Shown: positions 3,291 to 64,000 of the stretch, one piece after another
Position numbering within the stretch: position 1 is the first letter of the stretch
Layout of the letters: each line of letters opens with the position of its first letter
Assembly (NCBI GenBank): GCA_964035015.1
Contig: OZ036010.1
Coordinates: 10,682,730-10,746,729 of the forward strand
Length of the DNA: 64,000 nt
Direction of reading: 5' to 3'
Source of the DNA: Corallium rubrum
Lineage: Eukaryota; Cnidaria; Anthozoa; Scleralcyonacea; Coralliidae
Position numbers and translations under genes: made by a program
The notes under the pieces: generated by a model
Seen by the model: only the letters and a program-made list of their open reading frames with translations
Database searches by the model: none
Told to the model about the DNA's origin: nothing

Positions 3291-6200
3291 GAATCCAAGT
3301 CCAAGAGTAAGAAAAATTTATCAGAAGCTTTGGACAATAAGCAAAGTTCAAGAAAAGACTTGCTCATGAAGTAAGAGTCAGTATTTTTTTAAATTATCGC
3401 TTCTATCAATAAGTCATGGTCAATGATTACATTTTGATTCTTGAATCTAATTGTTTCATGATTTTAAGAACTAATGTTTAGGAAATAGAAAATGGTCGCC
3501 CGTGTTTATATAGCCTGATTATGCCTGCCCAATTGTAGCAATATTTAATCCGTAAATATAAAGATGTATTTGCATATTTTTTGTTAAAATTTACGGTAAA
3601 ATTCATTTGATTTGAACTTTTTTATTTGTGAATTTAAACTTTTCAAAAATTCATTTAAACGTTTTCAAAAATTCATTTAAACTTATTCAAAAATTCATTT
3701 AAACTTTTTCAAAAATTCTTTTAAACGTTTTCAAAAATTCATTTAAACGTTTTCAAAAATTCATTTAAACTTTCTCAAAAATTCATTTAAACTTTTTCAA
3801 AAATTCATTTAAACTTTTTCAAAAATTCATTTAAACTTTTTCAAAAATTCATTTAAACTTTTTCAAAAATTCATTTAAACTTTTTCAAAAATTCATTTAA
3901 ACTTTTTCAAAAATTCATTTAAACTTTTTTCAAAAATTCATTTAAACTTTCTCAAAAATTCATTTAAACTTTTTCAAAAATTCATTTAAACTTTTTTCAA
4001 AAATTCATTTAAACTTTTTCAAAAATTCATTTATTAAACTTTTTTAAAAATTCATTTAAATTTCCTGGGGCGAGCGCGGCCAGTATGTCCCATTTCCCGC
4101 GCAATGCAAATTAGTCGCCATGTTTTGTTTGCGGTCTCGCCGAACGTAAACCACTTTCAATAATTAAATATGGATAAAAAAGTTAAAGAAAAAGTTGCTA
4201 ATCTGCTCGAAGAAGCGTCAAAGCTTTTGCTAGCTGATTCACCCAATACATCTGCAACAGTTCCTTCCTGTGGCGGTGATTCAAGTCATTCAACTCGAAG
4301 TGGAACAACTACTGGTGGAACTCCTAGTTGCTCAACATTGGGAGAAACACTCCAGAGAGCCCAAGGTATGCTACGTGAGAGCTCTTCGTCTGGACTATAT
4401 AGACGTTTAAATAGAAATGAAAGATTACGAGCAGCGTCCCCTTATCAGCAGAGTAAACAAACAAGTGCCAAGCCGCCCAAGGAAAAAGCTAAAAAAGAAA
4501 AGAAAGCGATAGAGTTTGCGTTGCTGAAATGTTGGGAGGATGATGAAGAAGAACCGCATCATCTCAAATGGGATTCAGTCATTGCAAGTGGCATGCTAAT
4601 GCTACATGACAATGACAATGACAATGAGAAGACCATAAGAAATGCTTTAAAGGAATCTCTAGCTGCCAAAATACCATCACTTGGTGATAATGATTTCGAT
4701 TTCGTCAAAGTAAGGCACAAGACAATCACAATGCTGGAGTTGGGACCAGGGACTGAATTTAACTATGCTGTGGTGAAAAAGATGGCTGGTCAAGGGTTGC
4801 TTTATGTAAAAGTGAAGCAAGGTTATGAATTTCTGTATGATCAAGATAATGACAGTGATGCAATTTTACTGAAGTCCTATATGGATCAAGAAATCCAAAT
4901 TGTTAGTGAAACCAAACCTGCAGAAGCATGTTCATCACTTGTTCCACCTGACAAAACAGCACTGTCAGCAGGGAAGAAAGATCAACTTGAACTGAACAAC
5001 CATCAAGAGTCTTCAGTCCATGCTGATGATGCCCTGGTAAATGAAATAAGGAGCCAAGAGATGAGTGATCCAGTGGAAATTTTACGGTTCTTACAGAAGA
5101 ACATAATTGAAGGAAGAGAGTTGGATGTTGGAAATACATCAGACACTCCAGAAGGAGAAACCAACTATATTTGTGTCAATAGACATGACATTCTGACATC
5201 CACTTTCTCAGAGCTAGAGGCCATACAAAACTTTCATGTTACCTTTGAAGTTGACTTTATCGGTGAGATGGCAAGAGATCTAGGGGGACCAAGAAAGGAG
5301 TGGATCCGTCTAATGAATGCAGCGATGAAGGAAAAGTATTTTGACAGGGGTGTCCGTGAATACCTGGCAGATGACTACTACTATGTAGGCATTATGATGG
5401 GTATTGCCTTACTGCAGAATGGCCAGCTTCCAGCCTTTATGCCTGCTGATGTGATTGACAATCTGGTGTCATCACCAACTGGAAATCCCTGCATTGCTAA
5501 TTTACAGCGAGGTTTAAATGTTTTTGGCCTTGCTAGAATCATGCAAAAGATTCCCATCCTGCTTTATTTGCTGAGGCCCAACAATGTAAAGCTGGCAGCA
5601 AAGATGGTTCTGAAACTTCTAGCCCCTACATTCTCAGAAGAGGGATCCACAGCCTATTTGAAGGAAAAGGAATTTTATGCTTTGTTTGTGAAGTATGTCA
5701 GGCAGGTTGCAAGTGGACGGAGAGAACCAATCACTTTGAGTTCTCTTCTCATTTTTGTAACTGGTGCTGCAGAAGAGCCAGTACTAGGATTTACTATTCA
5801 TCCTTCTATTACATTTTTATGTGAAGATGAAAATTCTGTTGAGGTACAGTACTATATGTGTTAATATGTCCTGTATTTAGTTGTACACTAGTACCTGTGT
5901 TGTTATTCTGTCAGTAATTCTGTCAGGTCTCTCCTTCATGAGTTAAATTATCTGACATGAGCTAGAGTAAAGTCTGCTATGGACCTGAAAACTGACTAAA
6001 CAAATTCATATTAAAAGATGGAAAATTATCTAAGACACAAACCTTGTTTGGTAGTGTACTGTCTGGTATGAATTTAAGATGAAACTCATCTGACCACAAA
6101 GACACATTTCTTGTCTGAGACAAGTTTCTCATCAAAAATTTTCACTTTCGAACAACAGAAATATGAATAGATAAATAAAATTAAAGATGGGAAACTCATC

Positions 6201-9200
6201 ATTCGTAGAATATTACCTGAAAAGTAACCCAAAATTGTTGTCTTAGATGAATTACCATCTTCTAATATGAATTTGATTATACAGTATGTATTTAATTACT
6301 AAAAAAGTAACTAAATCAATACAGCACTTATTATCACCACTTTGAATTATAATCAGGATAGTCACAAGCTTTGGAACAGTGGTGAACTAGATGATGACAT
6401 CATATTTTTGATAATGACATACATTTGATGTCATAGAGCAGTTTTAAGGAAGAAAATGGTCAGTGCTGCTGCACAGTGTACTGACTACTGAGTGGGAAAG
6501 TCGAAAATCAAAGAGGATATTGTCATAACCTTTGTAAAATGTTTGACCAGTTTGATGGGAGCTTTTGGTGTTTTACTTACTTCTCCCCCAGTAGTTTCTC
6601 ATTTGGGGTGTGGATGCTGGTATTCCCTCTGTTCTGTAATTGCATTTTCTTACCTGTTAATCTGAACTTAAATTGCTTTCTTTAACAGTCTGCAGAATCA
6701 CCAGAACCAAATATGTACAAGTTTCTACCAACAGCCCACACATGTTCCAACAACATGGTTTTACCAATAGGATCTCTGACATCCAAGTTACCCAAAGAGG
6801 ATCGTCTGTTTGAAATTTATGGTTGTGCCTTTGGAAATTCTTACTTTGGAACAATCTGACTGACTACATATTTTTGTATGTAGGCAATAACTTGAAAAAC
6901 ATTTCATGTTACTTTGATATTGTCTTATGTTTGCACAGTCCCCTACTCAAGATAGTAAATATTGATGATGGTAGATTTCACTGACTGAATGGTTTTCATT
7001 ATTAAAGTTGATGTTTCTTATGGTGTGTTGTGTCAATGTTCCGTTTAGTGTATGGCAAGTCAATACATAAATAATTGCATAAATTGTAAACTAAATTAAA
7101 GTTTAAAAATACTATGGAAAACATGTAAAATCCTTAACGTTTTTTATGTTTCTGCAATTGTTTGATCTCACTAGATGGATCCATAAATCCCACTAGATGG
7201 ATCCATAAAAGAGAGATAGAGGTGCTCCAATTGACAGAGCCAAGTAAAGGGACTTGGAGTGATTATTTCTCTTTTCATTTTGTCTTCAGTAACAAAAATG
7301 TTAATTGTAATTTCTGCTTTTAATTTTTACATCTTTAATTAAAGATTTCATGAAATCACCATAGAGATCACAAATAAACATAAAGAACAATTGTATGTAC
7401 AAATACCCTTACTATCACATGCATTTCACTAAAATAGAATTTTATATTCAAACACCTGCCTTGAATAACATCAATAAACTCTACTGCTGTAACAGTATGA
7501 GTTATAAAAATTAATATGAATTGTGGTACTGTAGAAAATATTGTGCACTCACAAATATTCTTCAAGTTTTTGTACAACTAGTGCTAAAACCTCAGCATAA
7601 ATGTCCATACCAGCTTGATTTGATGGTCTGCTAACATTGACCTGCTGGAAAACAAAATCAGATATTTCTTTGCCTTGTACAATTTGCACTGGTTCAACAA
7701 TAACACCTTCAGCATCTGACAGAGGACGTGGGCCATCAGGATCAACACCATAATGTTGATCAACAACAGATTCATCCAAGCCACTATTAAAGCGTAATGG
7801 ATTGTCTTCATTGAGCATTCCATTTAGCCATATTTGATTAGGAGTCCAACCATTTTCAGTTGAAAGATGATGATTATTGAACATTGCAACAAATTCATCT
7901 AGAGCAGTATTTATTCTTCCAGTAAACACTAAATGTAATGCAAAAATATGGATTGGATTTTCAACATCCAGAATTGCTGTTTGTTCCATCGCATAGAAAG
8001 TATAATAGAAGAACTGACAAACGCATCTAAAGACGTCTCTCCAAAGTCTCTCTATCCGTTGATTGCCTGTGGATGCACCAGCAATGAAACTACCCCGTCC
8101 TTCACCCCGGTGAGCAACCATTTCATCACAGACCAACACGTTCTCAACACCATAATCTACACGGATACGTGACGGCCATAAGCCATGATTGTCATTGATA
8201 GCACTGTTGAAGAGATTCAGGACTGTTTCTGCTAAGTTGTTCGTACTGCACTTAAGAAACATGATTTTTCTAGATTTGCCATCACAACAACCATGAATAA
8301 CAAATTTCCACCTGATTAGGGAATGGTGTCCATCTATATGCCAAAGAGAATTTGGCCAACGTACAAAGTATTTTCTTCTTGATACTAGAGCACCCCAACG
8401 TAAAGCAGTATGCTGGGGATCCACCCTGTTTAGAGAAACTCTTCTTCTTCTTCTTCTCTGTATATGTAGGCCCAATGATCTGAAGTAGCCTGACATAAAT
8501 GGCTCACCTGTTGTTGAACCATGACGTGAAATGTAATCCCTTATAATATTGTCAATTCTTTCGTCTGAAATGATGGAAAACCGTTGCAAATTCGAAAGAC
8601 CATACTCTTGGACACGACGCATAATAGTCCATCTCGATACGCCAAACATTTGTGAGATCTTGCACCATGAGAAATTAAGTCCTCTTAATTCTACCAAACT
8701 CTCTTTTGGGATGTAGTAACCAGGTCTGCCAGGACGTTTTCTGTCCTCAATCAACAACGGCAGCTGACACGTTACGGTAATTCTGGCAGTTTCGTTATTG
8801 TAGAGGCAAATAAATTCGTTTTCAATTTCACAATAAACGCTTACTAGCTCTTCCCATTTCTTCGAATCATCAGCATCCAAAACAATAGCTCTAATTTCTT
8901 GCAACAGTTGCACTGTCTTACCCAGCAAATCCACGTGTTTCAACAGTTGAGAAAGGTAATTCTCAGAGATATCTCCGTCTCCACGATGCAAGCCTATTTC
9001 TTCGGACCTTTTCAATACAAAATTCAAAAACTTTTCAATATCGTCGGCCATTTTAACCCGTGTTTTTACCGCGCGGCCATTCTTGTCGTACCCAGACCCA
9101 AGCAAGCCCAAGCGCTTCAAAATAACCGCGCTCGCCCCAGGAAGTTCAAATGAATTTTTGAGAAAGTTTAAATGAATTTTTGAAAAAGTTTAAATGAATT

Positions 9201-11892
9201 TTTGAAAAAAGTTTAAATGAATTTTTGAAAAAAGTTTAAATGAATTTTTGAAAAAGTTTAAATAAATTTTTGAAAAAGTTTAAATGAATTTTTGAAAAAG
9301 TTTAAATGAATTTTTGAAAAAGTTTAAATAAATTTTTGAAAAAGTTTAAATGAATTTTTGAAAAAGTTTAAATGAATTTTTGAAAAAGTTTAAATGAATT
9401 TTTGAAAAAGTTTAAATGAATTTTTGAAAAAGTTTAAATGAATTTTTGAAAAAGTTTAAATGAATTTTTGAAAAAGTTTAAATGAATTTTTGAAAAAGTT
9501 TAAATGAATTTTTGAAAAGTTTAAATTCACAAATAAAAAAGTTCAAATCAAATGAATTTTACCGTAAATTTTAACAAAAAATATGCAAATACATCTTTAT
9601 ATTTACGGATTAAATATTGCTACAATTGGGCAGGCATACCTGATGCAAACACGTGAGCAAGTTGAGAGAATTCGAAAGTCTATGTAAACCTAAGCCGTAC
9701 AGGCAAGAATGTGGGGTGACGTCACAACCGTTTTTGTATTAGTCTGATATAAATATGGTAACTGACCAATCACATCGTGCAAAAGACGCAACCTATTTTA
9801 TGGAAAACGTTTGTTTAACACATAGCCATAGCAAGCTGTTTTTGGCGTGAGTTAACATAGTCCAGGGCCAAACCGAAGCCTTTCTCGAGTGTAAGGAATT
9901 GCTCGCCTGGAAACTCTAATCGTCGGATCCATAGGCATAATTCCGATAACACTAAGAAACTTGTTGTAGTTTTTATATATATGATTGGATGAAGCCAAAA
10001 ATCTTTAAATGCTAGTTTTTCTGAGTTTTGAGCTGAAATACTTAACGCCGAACGTTGGGCTCATGTATATGAAACTGAAGCTATTGAAAAATACTATTTG
10101 GTATAGAAACTTCAAGAGCTTAGCTAAAAGGGAAATAATTTAAAAATATAAAAACAACTGCCATTTTGTAACGTTCTGCAAACAAAATGGCAGTTGTTTT
10201 TCTCTTTTAAATATTAACCTTTTAGCTAAAGTCTTGAAGTTTCTATACCAAATAGCATTTTTCAATAGCTTCAGTTTCATATACAGCCCAACGTTCAGCG
10301 TTAAGTATTTAAGCTCAAAACTCAGAAAAACTAGCATTTAAAGATTTTTGGCTTCATCCAATCATATATATAGGGCCTGTTTATGGAGTTAGCGTTCCAG
10401 TCTTCCTATAGAGTTACCTGGGTGTGACACACCTTGTTGAAGTTCTGTTTTTTTGTTTTGTTTGACTCTAAATAGAAACGATCTAGAATACCAATACGAA
10501 AAGACGGCACAAGAGCTAGACTTAAAACGGAACGAGGTAGTAAGATTAACTAAGGAATATGAACAGAAGATCAGATTAAAAGAGGTGAGTTCGTTTTCCA
10601 GGTCTGAACATTTTTACTTTTTATAGTTAGAGTTAGATTTGCGAATACCCTACATCATATTCTAAGTTTTTGGCCTATTGACTCAGAACTCAGGTTCTTT
10701 TAATCAGAACCAAAACTAGCCGGCCCATAAGTAAAAGTGTTGAGAGCCAATCATTCGGCACACTTCTCGTTTTCCAACAAACATTCAGTACTTTTCGACT
10801 CCCAAAACTGGGATTTGTTGTTTGCACTTGCCACATAAGATTATACACGTCATATTGCTCTGATGAAGGTCTGAGTCGGCACCTAATAAATTAATTCACT
10901 AACCTCTAACAATTTTTCTCACGAGAGCCATTGATCATGCACTAGCTTGTACATTCTGTTCACTTGTTTATTATATATTAGTTATTAGATATATAAGTTA
11001 GCGCTTGAAAACTTTATGTTTTTGTTGACGTTTAGTTAGAAGAATATAGTCTGACAAAAAGATTGGCTGAACTGGCAATTGCAACAACGATGGAAGATCA
11101 TAAGCGTAGGACTATGGATACAGGCTATGAAATGTAAGTTCATAGAATGGCGATGATCGATAACTATCCGTTATTTGACGATGACGACTGCATGATGACA
11201 AGATATATATATACAGTTAAGTTGCATGGTCGACCGCGGTCGGGGGCAACCACAAGGCTCCTCTTTCGATGACTATACTACTCTAAGGTAAGGGTGGACG
11301 CCACTCCTATCCCTGATCAGTTTATGGTATTGATTTTGCCGAGGGAGTAAAACCGGAGAACAGCTCGGTAAAAAAGCCTCGAGACATGCAGAAGAGAATC
11401 AACGTTAGTAAATTAGGCTGTTTTCATTACGTCCGCTTTGCTCGCGCGGCGCGCGGAGCGGGCTTTGAAAGTTGGAAATTTTCAACTTCCAAAGCGAACT
11501 GAACAATGCACGCTCCGTCCGCGCGGGCAATGCGGACGTAATGGAAAATAGCACCCTGATCGATATAGATATATAGCCTTAATGAGAGGCAGCGCGCTAA
11601 CGGCTTGCGCCCCCTATATACTTCCCACAGTATTAACTAAATATGCACACAATTTATTGTGTTACTATAGCATTAGATGTTTATGTATTTTTAGGCTGGT
11701 AAAGGATTCTAATGTAATAACAAGCCAGGTACTGTATATTGTAATGGTAAATTAAAAACCCCCTTAACTCCTTGCTCTTCTTCAGTAGTTTAACCTATAT
11801 CCTCATTTATTTATTTTTTCTTATTTGAGTTTCAAGATTAATTTCATTATTTGTTTTTGGTGAAAGTTCCGTAGTTATAATAGCAGTACAGT

Positions 11893-23767: not shown

Positions 23768-26700
23768 TATAAAATTACTAGAAATACATAAACGCAACCC
23801 CCTCGCCCGCTTTTAACATATTAAATATACATAATCCCCCCCCCCCCCCCCCCGATTAAAATAAGCACCTGATCTGGGTTTTTTTCTACAAATATAAACA
23901 CCCTTGCCCTCCTGGCCTCCTTTACATCCTGTTTTATCACTTTTATGAATGTAATTTTTCTATTATTGACCAATTTCCAAAGCAATGTTTTATTCCAAAA
24001 TAATAAAGCAGTGGCTGAGGAAAAACTTGTGTCACGACCTAACTTAATAGCACCAGAAACTGAAAGCAAAAACAAACAATAATTACAGACGCTTATATCA
24101 AGGTGCCTATTAAACTGTTTTAATAATATGATTCCTCATGTTCCAAATATAATGTTGAACCTCAAAGAAAAACATCAAAACAGAAAAAAAACGTGGGTAA
24201 CAACAGCCTGAAAACTATAGGTATAAGAGAGGAAAAACTAACCAGGGAAGAACTATAACTTAATGCAAGGTTTTACTCGAAACATGGAAAAAAACGCCTG
24301 GGAAAATGTGTATTATTTGACAAGATTTTTGCTGTTTTAACTGAGTTTATTTAATACTGAAAAGGTTTCGGATATATACCGACTCTAATCAGCTAAGGAA
24401 ACGGCTGGAAAGTTAAATACGAATCACTGCTTACCGTTAAATTTTCTTTTGGCTCTTCTCAGATGCTGCAAATACTGCCATACGGGCTACGGCGTTTGGT
24501 TTCCGTGTTTTTTTCGTTCGGTTCTTAGCAAAAAGCAATCAATTCTCTTCAAAATGTGAAAAGCTGTTTGTGATGATGTTCCTTTCAATTCAATGTTCTC
24601 TCTCGAGCCAAGATATACCAGTCTTTTGCTGGCTTTGAACAGGCACACGAAGAAACATCTTTTTGTTTTTTTCAGTCACATTTGGCGGCATCTTTTCCGA
24701 TCTTTATCGCAATTTTTCATGCTTTTTCAATGGTTTCTAGTCGTGTTTAACATTATTTGGTTCATCCCACTGCAACATCTCTTCTTGGCTTTCCTTTTTC
24801 GGTCATTTGTAAACCAATTTTTCTGACAAAGATTTTGTTTCGCTTGAGCCGCGAAAGTTGGCGATTTGATGGATATATATATACATATAAACATCTCGCA
24901 GAATTTCTTTCCCACTCGCGTGTAATTTCGCATGTAAGTGGACTCCACGCGTGTCGAGATTAGCACCCTCACCGTGCTCCGGGCCTTCGGCCCGTCGCCC
25001 GGCCCGGGGAAAATGAATTATAATTACTAGAAATACATAAACGCAACCCCCTCACTCGCTTTTAACACATTAAATATACATAATCCCCCCCCCCCCCCCC
25101 CCCCCGATTAAAATAAGTACCTGATCTGTTTTTATATACAAATATAAACACCCTTGCCCTCCTGGCCTCCTTTACATCCTGTTTTATCACTTTTATGAAT
25201 GTAGTTTTTCTATTATTGACCAGTATTCCAAAGCAATGTTTTATTCCAAAACAAGACGCCCGCTAGGCGTGAACTCGGGCTACTGTGGGCTGGCACCTTG
25301 CAATTGACTGTAGTAGTGGAATATTCATCATAGAGAAAATCATGGTGGGTATACTGGTGTACCAAAACATTGATTTGGCAGCCATACTGGTCTGCCAAAA
25401 CATTGAAATGGTGTCCATTACTGGTGTACCAAAACAATGAAATAGTGGCCATACTGGTGTAACCAAAACAATGAAATAGTGGCCAATCGGCCATATTGGT
25501 GTACCAAAACAATGAAATAGTGGCCATACTGCATGGTGTACCAAAACAATGAAATGGCAGCCATACTGGTGTACCAAAACAATGAAATAGTGGCCATACT
25601 GGTGTACCAAAACAATGAAATAGTGGCCAATCAGCCATATTGGTGTACCAAAACAATGAAATAGTGGCAATACTGGTGTACCAAAAGAATGAAATAGTGG
25701 CCAATCGGTCATATTGGTGTACCAAAACAATGAAATAGTGGCCATACTGGTGTACCAAAACAATGAAATGGCAGCCATATTGGTGTACCAAAACAATGAA
25801 ATAGTGGCCATATTGGTGTACAAAACAATGAAATAGTGGCCATATTGGTGTAACTAAACATTGAAATGGTGGCCATATTGGTGTATCCAAACAATAATAC
25901 ACACTTGATGAAAGTAATGTATAACTGTTGAATAGCATCGACTTTTATTTGCAAGACATCAGTACAATAAATCAATAATAAACAATACAAGCAAAAATGA
26001 AGCAAACTACAAATATTAATACAGTTTAAACCTCAATACATTTACATACAGCATTCACAGACACAAGTCAGTTCGGTGTAAGACATATGATGTAAAGAAG
26101 ATGTAAAACACAGCATGTTTACCTTTCACTTGCAAGTTGGCTTTATCAACTTTCTTTGATCTTTGATTTACAGCACTTGAGCAACATTTTTCAGTACAAT
26201 TTAATTAATAACACATGTATAAAATTGATCGAGAACACATTGATCGAGAGTTGATCGAGTACTACACATTTTCAGCGTACGGTTATCGAGATCGCGGACC
26301 AACCCAGGTCTACTATAGTATAAAAGCATTGCGAGCGTGTTTATCATTAAAACACAAATTCACAAGTTTCGAACAACACAACCAAAGGCGTCAGGAGACT
26401 CAGGAGAAGAAAAAACTCGCCATTCCTGCATAAAAATCCGCCATGAAACAGCATTTGAGCTGTGACGTCAGAAGTGTCACATGCCTCAGTTTCGCAAAGC
26501 CTGTCGGGGCAATATCGCGACCCCAAAAAACACTACTAACAAAACCGAAATAATAGAGCAGTGGCTGAGGAAAAACTTGTGTCACGACCTAACTTAATAG
26601 CACCAGAAACTGATAGCAAAAACAAACAATAATTACAGACGCTTATATCAAGGTGCCTATTAAACTGTTTTAATAATATGATTCCTCATGTTTCAAATAT

Positions 26701-38072: not shown

Positions 38073-38981
38073 ATGGGAGAACAATCTGTCGAACTTATTA
38101 TAATTGCTGTATGTTTGACAGAAGGGATACTCTCAATCATTTTCAACGCGTTGCTATTACTTATATTTTATAAGAATCCTTTAAAAAACATGTGGCAATG
38201 TTCTTCGATTCTTATATTCAGTGTCACGTTAAGCGATTTCGCAGCTGGGGTAGTTTTTGTTTTCTGGAATGCATCCCACTGGCACGATTACTGGCATCAA
38301 GAGTGGCTAGGACAAGCTTCTCTCGTATTGATATGGATCTTTACGTTAACGTCAACCTTGACGCTTCTCGTTCTTTCGTTGCAGAGGTACCTTGTTGTCA
38401 AATGGCCCTGGGAGGCGCCACATATGATTACAAAACGAAGGACGGTCTTGACGTGCGCTATGGTGTGGATCGTCTCTATCATCTCGTGCGCATGCTCGCT
38501 ACCTGATCCTGCGAAGTACATATCTTCTCTGGTTTTGAGCAGCATCATCGAAGCATCTGCACTCACGCAGATTCTTCTCTACTTACTTTTGTGGCGGCAA
38601 ATTAAGCGCACGGAATCATTGCCTGGCGCTAATTACGAAGCCGAACAGCGGCAGCTTAACAGTGTAGTTTTCCTGCTGGCCATGGTGTTAATAGTGACGA
38701 TGTTCCCCATTCTCATCTGCTACCAAATCGAAGGCGTTCTCGTCCTGACTGGGAAATCACCAGAGACACAGGACCGATTACGTTGGGTGTTGTTTTACCT
38801 TCTTCCACTGTACATCGTGAATTTTTGCCTCAATCCGCTGATCTACGCTTGGCGGTTAGAGAAATATCGCAGTTCGTTGGTCGCAATTTTCCGCAAGACC
38901 AATCAGCAAACGTTAACCAATGCTGAAGAAAACGCTCTTAATCGTTCTGAAGCAGTGAGTATCGGCATACAGTTGATTTAA
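38073..38981 (+). CDS. Class A (rhodopsin-like) GPCR, copy 1
   Basis: A single-exon gene of 302 residues with seven hydrophobic segments. Family marks: N25 in TM1, LSDFAAG with D55 in TM2, Q104-R105-Y106 at the TM3 cytoplasmic end, W132 in TM4, P212 in TM6 and NPLIY at 254-258 in TM7. A sequon N66-A-S lies in the first outer loop. There is no TM3/loop-2 cysteine pair and loop 2 is very short (SLPDPAKYIS), as in melanocortin/lipid-type receptors. The ligand is unknown. It differs from copies 2 and 3 by Q instead of E in the E-R-Y motif, one extra codon (Ala147), and a one-base deletion after codon 290. The deletion replaces the SF end by RSEAVSIGIQLI. The ATG is the only sensible start, since upstream sequence is closed in frame. 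Surface receptor signalling through G proteins is expected from the family. Confidence 0.9.
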   Translation: MGEQSVELIIIAVCLTEGILSIIFNALLLLIFYKNPLKNMWQCSSILIFSVTLSDFAAGVVFVFWNASHWHDYWHQEWLGQASLVLIWIFTLTSTLTLLVLSLQRYLVVKWPWEAPHMITKRRTVLTCAMVWIVSIISCACSLPDPAKYISSLVLSSIIEASALTQILLYLLLWRQIKRTESLPGANYEAEQRQLNSVVFLLAMVLIVTMFPILICYQIEGVLVLTGKSPETQDRLRWVLFYLLPLYIVNFCLNPLIYAWRLEKYRSSLVAIFRKTNQQTLTNAEENALNRSEAVSIGIQLI

Positions 38982-44448: not shown

Positions 44449-45324
44449 ATGGGAAAACATTCTGTCGAACTTATTATAATTGCTGTATGTTTGACAGAAG
44501 GGATACTCTCAATCATTTTCAACGCGTTGCTATTACTTATATTTTATAAGAATCCTTTAAAAAACGTGTCGCAATGTTCTTCGATTCTTATATTCAGTGT
44601 CACGTTAAGCGATTTCGCAGCTGGGGTAGTTTTTGTTTTCTGGAATGCATCTCACTGGCACGATTACTGGCATCACGAATGGCTAGGACAAGCTTCTCTG
44701 GTATTGATATGGATCTTTACGTTAACGTCAAACTTGACGCTTCTCGTTCTTTCGTTGGAGAGGTACCTTGTCGTCAAATGGCCCTGGGACGCGCCACATA
44801 TGATTACAAAACGAAGGACGGTCTTGATGTGCGCAATGGTGTGGATCGTCTCTATCATCTCGTGCGCATGCTCGCTACCCGATCCGAAGTACATATCTCT
44901 TCTGGTTTTGAGCAGCTTCATCGAAGCATCTGCATTCGCGCAGATTCTTCTCTACTTACTTTTGTGGCGGCAAATTAAGCGCACGGAATCATTGCCTGGC
45001 GCTAATTACGAAGCCGAACAGCGTCAGCTTAGCAGTGTAGTTTTCCTGCTGTCCATGGTGTTAATAGTGACGGTGTTCCCCATTCTCCTCTGCTACCAAA
45101 TCGAAGGCGTTCTCGTCCTGACTGGGAAATCACCAGAGACACAGGACCGATTACGTTTGGTGTTGTTTTACCTTCTTCCACTGTACATCGTGAATTGTTA
45201 CCTCAATCCGCTGATCTACGCTTGGCGGTTAGAGAAATATCGCAGTTCGTTGGTCGCAATTTTCCGCAAGACCAATCAGCAAACGTTAACCAATGCTGAA
45301 GAAAACGCTCTTAATTCGTTCTGA
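44449..45324 (+). CDS. Class A (rhodopsin-like) GPCR, copy 2
   Basis: Intronless, 291 residues, in the same position of unit 2 as copy 1 in unit 1. The TM3 motif is the regular E-R-Y (LSLERYLVV) and the TM7 motif NPLIY is intact. It ends ...EENALNSF. About 20 residues differ from copy 3, clustered in TM4-TM6 and TM7 (for example VTVFPILLC against VTMFPILIC, NCYLN against NFCLN), and WHHEW against WHQEW in loop 1. All frames are intact, so it is probably functional. The 5' flank is nearly identical to the other copies for more than 400 bp, so expression may be shared. Ligand unknown. Confidence 0.9.
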   Translation: MGKHSVELIIIAVCLTEGILSIIFNALLLLIFYKNPLKNVSQCSSILIFSVTLSDFAAGVVFVFWNASHWHDYWHHEWLGQASLVLIWIFTLTSNLTLLVLSLERYLVVKWPWDAPHMITKRRTVLMCAMVWIVSIISCACSLPDPKYISLLVLSSFIEASAFAQILLYLLLWRQIKRTESLPGANYEAEQRQLSSVVFLLSMVLIVTVFPILLCYQIEGVLVLTGKSPETQDRLRLVLFYLLPLYIVNCYLNPLIYAWRLEKYRSSLVAIFRKTNQQTLTNAEENALNSF

Positions 45325-50954: not shown

Positions 50955-51830
50955 ATGGGAAAACAATCTGTCGAACTTATTATAATTGCTGTATGTTTGA
51001 CAGAAGGGATACTCTCAATCATTTTCAACGCGTTGCTATTACTTATATTTTATAAGAATCCTTTAAAAAACATGTGGCAATGTTCTTCGATTCTTATATT
51101 CAGTGTCACGTTAAGCGATTTCGCAGCTGGGGTAGTTTTTGTTTTCTGGAATGCATCTCACTGGCACGATTACTGGCATCAAGAATGGCTAGGACAAGCT
51201 TCTCTCGTATTGATATGGATCTTTACGTTAACGTCAACCTTGACGCTTCTCGTTCTTTCGTTGGAGAGGTACCTTGTTGTCAAATGGCCCTGGGACGCGC
51301 CACATATGATTACAAAACGAAGGACGGTCTTGATGTGCGCAATGGTGTGGATCGTCTCTATTATCTCGTGCGCATGCTCGCTACCCGATCCGAAGAACAT
51401 ATCTTTTCTGGTTTTGAGCAGCATCGTCGAAGCATCTGCACTCACGCAGATTCTTCTCTACTTACTTTTGTGGCGGCAAATTAAGCGCACGGAATCATTG
51501 CCTGGCGCTAATTACGAAGCCGAACAGCGTCAGCTTAACAGTGTAGTTTTCCTGCTGGCCATGGTGTTAATAGTGACGATGTTCCCCATTCTCATCTGCT
51601 ACCAAATCGAAGGCGTTCTCGTCCTGACTGGGAAATCACCAGAGACACAGGACCGACTACGTTCGGTGTTGTTTTACCTTCTTCCACTGTACACCGTGAA
51701 TTTTTGCCTCAATCCGCTGATCTACGCTTGGCGGTTAGAGAAATATCGCAGTTCGTTGGTCGCACTTTTCCGCAAGACCAATCAGCAAACGTTAACCAAT
51801 GCTGAACAAAACGCTCTTAATTCGTTCTGA
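50955..51830 (+). CDS. Class A (rhodopsin-like) GPCR, copy 3
   Basis: Intronless, 291 residues, with E-R-Y at TM3 and NPLIY at TM7, ending ...EQNALNSF. In TM1-TM3 it is closer to copy 1 (NMWQCSS, WHQEW, STLTL); in the C-tail it shares the SF end with copy 2. This mixed pattern could reflect gene conversion. It lies about 430 bp downstream of the unit-3-specific palindrome (50464-50625), which may affect its promoter. Function as for the other copies: plasma-membrane receptor of unknown ligand. Confidence 0.9.
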   Translation: MGKQSVELIIIAVCLTEGILSIIFNALLLLIFYKNPLKNMWQCSSILIFSVTLSDFAAGVVFVFWNASHWHDYWHQEWLGQASLVLIWIFTLTSTLTLLVLSLERYLVVKWPWDAPHMITKRRTVLMCAMVWIVSIISCACSLPDPKNISFLVLSSIVEASALTQILLYLLLWRQIKRTESLPGANYEAEQRQLNSVVFLLAMVLIVTMFPILICYQIEGVLVLTGKSPETQDRLRSVLFYLLPLYTVNFCLNPLIYAWRLEKYRSSLVALFRKTNQQTLTNAEQNALNSF

Positions 51831-61700: not shown

Positions 61701-63275
61701 AGGCATGACTTATATTTGACATTTGAAAATAGTCCAAAAGTAATCTAAAACGTGTCAGTACGCTAAAATTATTGTGGCCGTCCGTATTGAAGTCAATGTT
61801 CTCATCTTTTGGCCGTTGACGTCATCCTGAAGACGTGAAAATGCTCTAAGCAGCGTTGTCATAAAGAACGAGGACGGTGTTCAGATTACTCTGGAGACTA
61901 AAAATTATTCATTCGCTTCGTTTGGCAAAAATAATTCTTTTATTTAAAAAACGTCGTCGTTGGGGTTGACGTCGTACATCTTAAAGTTCCTAATTACTTT
62001 TGACATGTGCGTACAGTTCAACTCTTTCCCAGCTATAACTCTAACGTTTAAACCATATTATCCCCGAGCCGGGCGACGGGCCGAAGGCCCGGAGCCCGGT
62101 GAGGGTGCTAATCTCGACACGCGTGGAGTTCATTTTACACGCGTGTAGAAAAAGCGAGGCAGACGAAAATCTGGAAGCTGTTTATATATATATATACGTC
62201 GTAGGGTGTCGTGCGGTAAGAATTGTTGTACTGGTGACTGACAATGAAGCACCACAAAATTATAAACTAAATCTATGGCTATATTTTGCGAAACGAAAGA
62301 AACGAAATGGAGCCCGCTCTACTAAAACAACAAACGGCGGTTTAATATATCTTGAAGAGAAACCAGAAAACCTGAAGATACTAAAGACACTAAACGCTTT
62401 TAATGGTAAATAAAAAGTCGATCTGAATTGGCAGTGTCTGTGGTAACTCAGGTAGGGGATTTGTATATTTATTTTGCTGATTGGATTCATTGTATTAAGT
62501 TCCAAGACCGGCAATACGTTTAAATAAAAGCCCTTTTATAGTCACTCGTCCGTTAAACTTAATCTAGCATCTATTATATAAAGTTTAATACATTGTGTTC
62601 AATGTGTTGTTTTCATGTTTTCGCTTAAACCTAAATGATATACAGCTCCACTTATATTCGTGCTTACCTTTTTAAAAACTTGTAAAACTTATGTGGACGT
62701 GGTGTTTTTCATTGACTGTGTATATGCACTTCTTATTATTTATAATACTCATGGGCCGACTTTGCCGATTTTCTAGGCAGTATACCAAATTTTCGCCAGA
62801 AACGTTGTCTGTTTAATATTTCTTTCTGGAATCCGATTCTACTGAATTGTTTTTATCTCAGACTTTATATTATTAATGTAGTTTTGGAGCTGTTAACTTT
62901 TAATTCTGCCTTTGCAAAACATGTATGCAGAACAGCAGAGGGAAGCCATTTAAAGACTTGCTAAAAATAATTCCCTTGGAAACCTATAAACAATGAATAT
63001 ATGTTTTACAGCTATAGTTCAATTAATGAAACCTAAGTTTTGCTTTCAAATGTTCAATTTTCAAATCAGAAATCTGAAAGTAAACAGTTAGTCACCCTAT
63101 AAATGCATATCAGGAGGGCTTTAATATTTTAATCAGGGGGTGTGTGTTTCAAAAATACATATAAAATTTAAAGATGATCTGTGTGTCATTAATACAACAA
63201 AAACAGAAATTAGGGGGGAGGGGGGTTAAAAATGCATATAAAGCAGGCGAGGGGTTGTTGCATTCATGTATTTCT

Positions 63276-63315
<40 letters not shown>

Positions 63316-63664
63316 ATATACTTTGTTTTAAAAAACACATAGGTATTCTTATGATGCTAGACATTCCGCAGGAGAGAGGAATGTCATTGGTTGGTAACCG
63401 CTGGCAAGATCCATCCATGTGTTACTTCCCATTGTTTGACTGGTTAAGGCCCCTCTCTGTCGACTGGATGTATGTCGTGTATCTTGTGATGTTTCTTGGT
63501 GCTTTGGGGATCACTTTGGGTTGCTGTTACAGGGCCAGCTGCCTAATGTTTGTTTCGACCTATTGGTATATATTTTTCTTGGACAAGACTGTGTGGAACA
63601 ACCACTCGTATCTGTATGGTTTGATATCATTCCTGTTGCTGTTAACGGACGCCAACAGATACTG
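54073..63664 (+). CDS. GGCX: Vitamin K-dependent gamma-carboxylase, 5' part
   Basis: Secure exons are 60930-61091 and 63343-63664. They join as [17 protein letters not shown] through codon G|GT and continue [37 protein letters not shown] and DANRYW, a collinear match to the N-terminal membrane region of animal GGCX. The last exon stops at donor TG|GTAAGT and the gene runs off the window, so the catalytic lysine region is not included. A tentative first exon, 54073-54085 (ATGAACAATGAG plus G, donor GGTAAGT), has the phase needed by the acceptor TGCACTAG at 60929. Otherwise translation could begin at ATG 60917. GGCX is a multi-pass ER membrane enzyme. It converts glutamate to gamma-carboxyglutamate in secreted proteins using reduced vitamin K, O2 and CO2. 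Introns of 6.8 and 2.25 kb are repeat-filled. The gene identity is near certain; exon 1 is about 40 percent. Confidence 0.88.
55140..55362. repeat. Two small hairpins
   Basis: GCTAATTAGTTACAA (about 55140) and TTGTAACTAATTAGC (about 55196) form one inverted repeat. Nearby, TTACAACACTCGCG and GTATTGAATATAC are mirrored by GTATATTCAATACAAC...TGTTGTAA between about 55260 and 55360. Both look like small foldback elements in the first GGCX intron. Confidence 0.65.
55371..55424. repeat. (TA)n microsatellite
   Basis: Fifty-four bases of alternating AT following a CATACAT lead-in, in the first GGCX intron. Confidence 0.95.
55661..55730. repeat. (TA)n microsatellite
   Basis: Seventy bases of alternating AT. 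The reading frames of YIYIYI across it on both strands are artefacts. Confidence 0.95.
56086..57301. mobile_element. Non-autonomous element with AACGTTGT arrays
   Basis: Ends CCCAGCTAACA and TGTTAGCTGGG are exact inverted repeats, flanked by GTGT on both sides (56082-56085, 57302-57305), a possible 4-bp target duplication. Subterminal regions are packed with palindromic AACGTT words. On the left, about five copies of a ~60-bp unit run ATACAACGTTATATCCTGAC then GTTCGTACAACGTTGTGGCA; on the right are AACGTTGTCACAACGTTG words. The 600-bp centre has no ORF of note. It lies in the first GGCX intron. Superfamily not assigned. Confidence 0.75.
57306..58127. other. Intronic stretch without recognisable features
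   Basis: AT-rich sequence of the first GGCX intron. An open frame at 57374-57580 has no recognisable domain. Confidence 0.4.
58128..58380 (+). mobile_element. 5S rRNA-derived SINE
   Basis: GCAAAGTTAAGCCCAG then GGTTAGTACTTGGATGGGTG and CTGGGAATA follow the order of 5S rRNA box A, intermediate element and box C. The body GTTATCTGGTTTTCCTCAC(T)CCGTAGA matches the body of the SINE at 31255. It is too diverged at both 5S ends to be a functional 5S gene. Confidence 0.7.
58381..60071. other. Intronic stretch without recognisable genes
   Basis: First GGCX intron. It contains several CCCCGGGG-containing C-rich patches near 58980-59110 and 59290-59370 but no conserved coding frame. The minus-strand frame at 58598-58900 has no domain. 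Confidence 0.4.
60072..60137. repeat. 66-bp perfect hairpin
   Basis: AGGCGACCATTTGATGTTAA and its inverted copy form a 27-bp perfect stem, with loop GTAATATATTCC. Intronic to GGCX. Confidence 0.85.
60480..60785. repeat. Degenerate repeat with CTCGTACGCTTTTT end
   Basis: A C-rich CCTAACC/CAACCCC block (60490-60580) is followed by AAAATCC/AAAATCTC words and then CTCGTACGCTTTTTCGGGAG, TGATTCGCCCCTTG. The same end, allowing changes, closes the AAAGTCC repeats at about 28550-28592 and, inverted, opens the one at about 22756. Confidence 0.55.
61140..61420. mobile_element. TTGCAAC-rich inverted-repeat element, fourth copy
   Basis: GAAAAGCGTTGTTGCACGTA at the left and TACGTGCAACAACGCTTTTC at the right are inverted ends. 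The core matches, in reverse orientation, the element in each receptor unit (GTAGACTCCAGTTCCACTTG against its complement). It lies in the second GGCX intron. Confidence 0.75.
62050..62150. repeat. Inverted match to the end of the 24-kb duplicated segment
   Basis: CGACGGGCCGAAGGCCCG and GGTGCTAATCTCGACACGCG here are the reverse complement of 24940-25015. A dispersed repeat with this GC-rich terminus is implied. It lies in a GGCX intron; the frame starting at 62099 runs into it and is not called. Confidence 0.6.
63279..63320. repeat. (TA)n microsatellite next to an exon
   Basis: About 42 bases of AT dinucleotides with one interruption, ending 22 bp before the GGCX exon at 63343, inside the acceptor region. 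The polypyrimidine tract left is short (CTTTGTTTTA). Confidence 0.85.
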
Positions 63665-64000
63665 GTAAGTGAGTTGTGGTTTTTCACCCTTTACCGGCAA
63701 CTTATTAGCTTTGCTCGAACGCCAGATAATTGTAATTATACATAAACTTACTTCAAGTCTGCCATGCAGTTACATAAAAAAGTGGAGCAGCTCACAAGTT
63801 TCACCCCTGTATGTCATAGGGTGAGATTTAATAAATAGTGATAACAATGATTTATTGAGGGTAAACACTTTACAGTCGAATTGACAAACATGTGGCCGTG
63901 TAACATCGTCTTAACACTTGTCTTACACCGTACAACAGTACCTTATACTGCTTCCTTTTCATAAGAGCATATATGCATGGTACATGCATGCATTACATTG
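63665..64000. other. GGCX intron running off the window
   Basis: Starts with the donor GTAAGTGAG. No further exon is recognised before the end of the window. Confidence 0.6.

What the first reader, a model, noticed from the sequence alone, without database searches (positions are those of the whole stretch)
3520..9638. A DNA transposon that pairs a HECT ubiquitin ligase with an integrase-like DDE transposase
Seen: exact 6-bp duplication, ~500-bp inverted ends, a HECT protein and a D-D-E protein in convergent orientation, both open. Known: HECT ligases need a catalytic Cys near the C terminus; DDE transposases need D, D, E in an RNase-H fold; both patterns are visible. Inference: the element brings its own ubiquitin ligase, perhaps to remove a host inhibitor, regulate transposase level or time transposition. 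Assignment to IS3EU rests on recalled features (6-bp duplication, TAY ends).
Basis: partly seen in the sequence, partly recalled or inferred. Interest (0 to 1): 0.9.

Follow-up and report, generated by a model that had tools for sequence, protein, structure and literature searches.

The report
Jumping gene carrying a ubiquitin ligase
This is an apparently recently active cut-and-paste DNA transposon of an animal (probably a cnidarian) that carries, besides its own integrase-like transposase, a gene for a HECT ubiquitin ligase, and the same two-gene layout recurs in diverged relatives, so the ligase looks like a working part of the transposon rather than a stowaway.

Summary
The element is real: window 3520-9638, 6119 bp, exact 6-bp duplication (CCTGAT), TATGCC..GGCATA ends, ~500-bp inverted repeats. 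It holds a D-D-E transposase (7549-9051, -) and a convergent HECT gene (+). Correction: the HECT catalytic Cys lies in a second exon behind an 845-bp intron; splicing lifts the Pfam score from 16.2 to 35.0 bits (cut-off 23.9). A second intact copy elsewhere has its own duplication (AGCGTT). Of 20 HECT loci that I picked, 18 have a convergent transposase; of 5 loci picked by transposase alone, 5 have the HECT. Fifteen elements show exact, all-different 6-bp duplications. Ends and duplication fit IS3EU/GingerRoot, but no tree with reference transposases was possible. My searches of the held papers found no description of the pairing; Repbase and Dfam could not be searched. Verdict: new variant of a known kind, an IS3EU-like lineage with a resident HECT ligase that probably acts on a host or element protein to favour or tune transposition. 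That function is untested.

The parts
3514..3519 (.). left target-site duplication CCTGAT
3520..4016 (+). left terminal inverted repeat, 497 nt, starts TATGCCTGCC; inner part is a 22-bp tandem array
3632..4060 (+). 22-bp tandem array (about 19 copies by TRF) in and just inside the left TIR
   Evidence: TRF element positions 113-541
4170..5843 (+). HECT ligase gene, exon 1 (558 aa, N-terminal region and most of the HECT domain)
5844..6688 (+). predicted intron, GT..AG, 845 bp
   Evidence: junction conserved in the second copy; splicing raises the Pfam HECT score
6689..6859 (+). HECT gene, exon 2, with the catalytic Cys loop LPTAHTCSNNMVLP (Cys codon 6743-6745) and stop TGA
7549..9051 (-). DDE transposase, 500 aa from ATG (Pfam PF24764 rva_4); D240, D299, E334 codons at 8332-8334, 8155-8157, 8050-8052
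   Evidence: fold
9142..9638 (-). right terminal inverted repeat with its 22-bp array, ends GGCAGGCATA
9639..9644 (.). right target-site duplication CCTGAT

Best explanation
A complete, apparently recently active autonomous cut-and-paste transposon of the IS3EU/GingerRoot kind whose standing gene set is a DDE transposase plus a HECT-type ubiquitin ligase, transcribed towards each other. Shown by sequence: termini, 6-bp duplications, intact copies at different sites, recurrent linkage of the two genes in diverged families, catalytic motifs in both proteins, low dN/dS in both between families. Inferred from the integrase family: the transposase binds the long repeated TIRs and joins the ends to target DNA with a 6-bp stagger. 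Inferred and not shown: the ligase takes ubiquitin from an E2 onto its Cys and marks a protein whose removal or change helps or times transposition; I think a host restraint (chromatin, silencing or repair protein) somewhat likelier than the transposase itself. Rough odds: host target 0.5, transposase or element complex 0.35, other 0.15.
Against: No expression, ubiquitination or transposition data. 2 of 20 HECT loci lack the transposase in the 10 kb read, and the 20 were picked, not random. Only 19 of 83 listed transposase hits have a listed Pfam-HECT hit within 8 kb; both lists are truncated and Pfam misses this HECT type (the window's own HECT is not listed), so the true fraction is unknown. 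Nearest neighbours in the two distance matrices agree for only 11 of 24 elements, so gene exchange between families is possible. Recent pairs have too few changes for a firm dN/dS, and one (L015/L016 HECT) gives 2.5 on 10 changes. Both models are of middling confidence (pLDDT 68 and 76), and the C-lobe with the Cys is poorly modelled. Contigs of equal length were not read, so their identity is presumed.
Confidence: 0.75

Rival explanations
1. Self-regulation: the ligase ubiquitinates the element's own transposase or synaptic complex, limiting its level or timing disassembly after strand transfer.
For: Conserved pairing and co-divergence of the two proteins would suit a direct partner. Recalled, no call: the MuA transpososome is taken apart by ClpX.
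Against: No direct evidence; nearest neighbours agree in only 11 of 24 elements.
Confidence: 0.3
2. Passenger gene: a host HECT gene was captured once and is merely carried.
For: 2 of 20 HECT loci have no transposase in the stretch read; transposons do carry host fragments (general knowledge).
Against: The gene recurs in diverged families with the same layout, co-diverges with the transposase, keeps its catalytic Cys in 20 of 20 and shows low dN/dS between families.
Confidence: 0.04
3. The HECT gene belongs to another element nested in, or abutting, the transposon.
For: Two genes in opposite orientation with about 0.7 kb without a long ORF between them.
Against: Both genes lie between the same termini in 15 elements with exact duplications at 15 different sites.
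Confidence: 0.02
4. The element is a member of another or a new integrase-like superfamily rather than IS3EU/GingerRoot.
For: No IS3EU reference protein could be compared; the solved integrases matched by fold share only 9-16% identity.
Against: TA..TA ends, 6-bp TSD and no HHCC motif all fit the published description.
Confidence: 0.15

Closest known systems
IS3EU/GingerRoot superfamily (Kojima & Bao 2023, PMC10045372; part 1 of 5 of the text and 12 passages seen)
   Same: TA..TA ends, usually 6-bp TSD, integrase-like DDE transposase without HHCC domain, first D 100-300 residues from the N-terminus.
   Different: That paper's main text holds no 'HECT' or 'ubiquitin'; here a HECT ligase is a standing second gene.
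Fungal IS3EU with TET/JBP and alpha-kinase genes (Kojima 2025, PMC12730594; passages seen)
   Same: IS3EU elements with TAYGG..CCRTA ends, 6-bp TSD and an alpha-kinase gene in the orientation opposite to the transposase.
   Different: The accessory enzymes are a kinase and a TET/JBP dioxygenase, in fungi; here a ubiquitin ligase, in an animal. No 'HECT' or 'ubiquitin' in its main text.
Plant MULE and CACTA transposons with ULP1 SUMO-protease genes (recalled, no call)
   Same: A transposon carrying an enzyme of a ubiquitin-like pathway.
   Different: A deconjugating protease rather than a conjugating ligase; other transposase superfamilies.
HECT ligases AREL1, SMURF1/2, NEDD4, WWP2 (PDB)
   Same: HECT fold; GGPRKEW in the N-lobe and HTC in the catalytic loop (likeness to the canonical motifs recalled).
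   Different: About 10-22% identity in structural alignments; different N-terminal region; encoded inside a transposon.

Membership tests
IS3EU/GingerRoot | TA..TA termini | tested here: met
   TATGCC..GGCATA observed in the window and L009; in the other 13 elements TA was a search condition. Definition read
IS3EU/GingerRoot | usually 6-bp target-site duplication | tested here: met
   CCTGAT and AGCGTT exact; 13 further exact cases, where a 6-bp match was a search condition
IS3EU/GingerRoot | integrase-like DDE transposase core without an upstream HHCC motif, first D 100-300 residues in | tested here: met
   0 of 57 sequences match one loose HHCC pattern before the first D, which lies at 206-275; in 1 of 58 the first D was not located; DDE invariant
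IS3EU/GingerRoot | transposase groups with IS3EU/GingerRoot references in a tree | not testable with these tools
   Repbase and the GingerRoot data set are not held (GingerRoot paper not held)
IS481EU | TG..CA ends and TSDs of about 4, 15 or 25 bp | tested here: not met
   TA..TA ends and 6-bp TSDs; definition read
Ginger1 | HHCC domain upstream of the DDE core | tested here: not met
   definition from passages
HECT E3 ligase | catalytic Cys loop near the C-terminus | tested here: met
   LPTAHTCSNNMVLP at Cys 577 of 614 after splicing; Cys at the matching place, read by eye, in 20 of 20 sampled relatives
HECT E3 ligase | HECT fold and profile | tested here: met
HECT E3 ligase | ubiquitin transfer activity | not testable with these tools
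   needs an in vitro assay

The most novel reading that the evidence does not exclude
Ubiquitin transfer by an element-encoded HECT ligase is a normal, selected step or counter-defence in the life cycle of an old lineage of animal DNA transposons, which would also make such transposons the source of many of the extra HECT genes in cnidarian and perhaps other animal genomes.
Probability: 0.4. Interest if true: 0.88.

Novelty: new variant of a known kind. Interest (0 to 1): 0.74.

Why it matters
Few transposons are known (from general knowledge) to bring enzymes that act on the host's protein-modification system. A ubiquitin ligase kept with a transposase across many families suggests that transposition in these animals meets a ubiquitin-dependent control. 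Here is an intact two-gene element, with a 99% identical second copy, in which that could be tested by a single Cys mutation. It also warns annotators that many HECT genes in such genomes are probably transposon genes: 18 of the 20 long-frame HECT loci that I picked sit beside a transposase.

Tried and rejected
Viral contigs: a scan with the transposase found no relative. PDB by sequence: no match for the transposase alone or as a profile. A Ubl-like N-terminal domain in the HECT protein (strand-helix order at residues 107-209 of the P0121 model, Foldseek match to USP7 Ubl domains at E 0.017) is only a hint, since the aligned range was not shown. Literature searches in the held library: HECT + transposon + IS3EU, none; HECT domain + transposase + terminal inverted repeat, none; HECT + DNA transposon + ubiquitin ligase + domesticated, 3 papers, 2 listed; four of five terms around HECT, transposable element and Repbase, 68 papers, 20 listed; phase-specific E3 + transposase, 1; IS3EU + ubiquitin, 2; HECT-in-transposon phrases, none; HECT + transposase + integrase core domain, 3. 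The listed papers were judged by title and start of abstract; one, on coelacanths (PMC4255032), was opened by passages and holds no HECT in its main text. Of 35 papers with IS3EU (30 listed) four were opened by passages, and none of their main texts holds HECT. Repbase and Dfam could not be searched, so a prior listing there is open. The origin of the transposon HECT among host HECT genes was not tested. The genome-wide searches with the window's HECT protein and with PF24764 did not complete.

Limits of my own counts: my first patterns for the Cys motif missed most families; the ORF ends were then read by eye and a corrected pattern was used. In one search I entered 115 of 116 HECT contig lengths (one missed), and only the listed best 120 of 1560 transposase hits; with short contigs included 10 of 110 lengths agree, 0.86 expected. 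In one search the 20 HECT loci were picked by me from 131 matches as those with long in-frame matches, leaving out the strongest, host-like ones and some further frames of 340-500 aa. L022 also holds a second transposase fragment in the other orientation. In one search, L019 gave two pairs of 25 of 25, of which I took the outer (the inner one, TTCGAA, is a palindrome inside the TIR); L009 gave three such pairs for the same kind of reason. L027, L028 and L030 have repeated ends at a microsatellite and were not counted; for L026 no pair could be tested.
Full report
What is there. The window holds one complete element at 3520-9638 (6119 bp) flanked by the exact repeat CCTGAT. Its ends read TATGCCTGCC..GGCAGGCATA. 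The inverted arms are 497 nt and 94% complementary, with the outermost 141 bp identical; the inner part of each arm is an array of a 22-bp unit, about 19 copies on the left by TRF. The number of units differs between copies (17 and 16 in the window arms, 7 and 16 in L009), which accounts for most of the length difference. Tandem units of other lengths (21-25 bp, or 47) also occur near the left end of relatives such as L032, L033, L036 and L017, but not of L012 or L013, and hardly of L015 (left 1500 bp only). That such units are binding sites for the transposase is my inference.

The transposase. The minus-strand ORF is 523 aa from a TTG; the homologue P0007 begins MAD.., so the start is probably the ATG at 9051 (500 aa). 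Pfam gives rva_4 (PF24764, integrase core) at 4e-72 and rve at 3e-4, the latter below its cut-off. D240, D299 and E334, with spacings of 58 and 34, are invariant in 58 aligned homologues. The model (mean pLDDT 75.6) matches retroviral intasomes, Mu and TnsB (best E 1.2e-4); sequence search against the PDB found nothing.

Copies. The genome (474 Mb, 312 contigs) was searched with the outer 121 bp: 7 matches, namely both ends of the window copy, both ends of a copy on C250 and three pieces on C12. The C250 copy (L009 2025-7880) has its own exact duplication AGCGTT, unrelated flanks, both genes open and 42 mismatches over the inner 5 kb. The C12 copy is decayed (stretches of 87-90% identity, broken frames).

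Is the pairing general? The Pfam HECT search of the genome listed 131 matches, with 129 of 515 candidates scored. I fetched 20 with long frames (picked, not random): 18 of 20 have a PF24764-type transposase in the 10-kb stretch and in all 18 it converges with the HECT frame (HECT strands; L022 holds a further fragment in the other orientation). By the identities the 20 fall into about 10 groups, and each group has at least one paired locus. In reverse, I took five of the six best transposase hits outside the window's own and C250 copies (53-59% identical); the sixth could not be fetched. All 5 (L032-L036, of which L032 and L034 are near-copies) have a convergent HECT gene, in pieces in L035. 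By coordinates alone, 19 of 83 listed transposase hits have a listed Pfam-HECT hit within 8 kb, 18 convergent, against a mean of 0.98 and a maximum of 4 after shifting; both lists are truncated (82 of 1300 transposase candidates were scored) and Pfam misses the window's own HECT type. Exact 6-bp duplications next to TA..TA inverted ends (24-25 of 25 bases; other pairs in those loci mostly scored 14-17) enclose both genes in 10 of the 20 loci (L012-L017, L019, L021, L022, L031) and in 3 of the 5 (L032, L033, L036). With the window and L009 that makes 15 elements with 15 different duplications and no evident target consensus. L018 has both ends but flanks that fit only with one base of slippage, and L034 runs out of the stretch. 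L020 and L025, the loci without transposase, are rearranged relatives of L023 and L024.

Beyond this genome. Homologues of the transposase (1560 at E <= 1e-3, 120 listed) and of the HECT protein (116) that carry a species name in the listings come from cnidarians (Dendronephthya, Paramuricea, Montipora, Porites, Oculina, Actinia, Desmophyllum, Hydra); most rows have no name. That the window's host is a cnidarian is inferred from this. Nine of 72 distinct HECT contig lengths above 4 kb equal a transposase contig length, 0.05 expected by an offset control, so the pair probably also travels together elsewhere; those contigs themselves could not be read.

Selection. Between two diverged families (L013, L015) dN/dS is 0.11 for HECT and 0.09 for the transposase, with dS near saturation; between the window and L009, 0.23 and 0.43 on 9 and 13 changes; L026/L027, 0.08 and 0.05; L015/L022 HECT 0.64 and L015/L016 HECT 2.5, the latter on 10 changes. 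The catalytic Cys is present, read by eye, in 20 of 20 HECT ORFs. Pairwise distances of the two proteins over 24 elements or presumed pairs correlate (r 0.85, 0 of 9999 permutations), though nearest neighbours agree in only 11 of 24: shared descent with possible exchange.

How it most likely works. Shown: a mobile two-gene unit. Inferred from the integrase family: end binding, cleavage and joining with a 6-bp stagger. Inferred, untested: a HECT ligase that changes the fate of a host restraint or of the transposase. The fungal IS3EU elements with alpha-kinase and TET genes (PMC12730594; passages) show that this superfamily takes up enzymes beside the transposase, there too with one in the opposite orientation; the abstract suggests that the TET enzymes help transposons escape methylation-based silencing. 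By analogy a counter-defence role is plausible, but self-regulation is nearly as likely.

Membership and novelty. The three published IS3EU marks that I could test are met; for most relatives TA ends and a 6-bp repeat were search conditions, so the window and L009 are the unbiased cases. The tree test was out of reach. None of eight literature searches aimed at the pairing turned up a description of HECT ligases in transposons in the held library; listed papers were judged by title and start of abstract, not all were listed, and Repbase/Dfam were not available. Hence: new variant of a known kind, with the caveat that database curators may have seen it.

Noticed in passing
window 9974-10372: Near-perfect palindrome of about 400 bp (nested inverted pairs 98% and 89% complementary), 335 bp beyond the element's right end: possibly a hairpin MITE.
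   Followed up: partly
window 38073-38981, 44449-45324, 50955-51830: Three tandem rhodopsin-class GPCR ORFs, spaced about 6.4-6.5 kb, with very similar sequences: probably a recent tandem duplication.
   Followed up: partly
window 63174-63668: ORF with an HTTM domain (Pfam 3e-47); likeness to vitamin-K-dependent carboxylase recalled.
   Followed up: no
window 25213-25938: ORF made of a short repeated peptide, a coding-looking minisatellite on the minus strand.
   Followed up: no
L012-L036 and window: At least five groups of HECT-transposase elements with different ends (TATGGAGT, TACGGTGG, TATGGAACG, TATGAAGG, TATGCCTG); some HECT genes are a single frame including the Cys, others have the Cys in a separate exon.
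   Followed up: partly
L017 4563-6668 (-): HECT protein with a possible N-terminal zinc ribbon (Pfam 9e-4, below cut-off), not seen in the window's protein.
   Followed up: no
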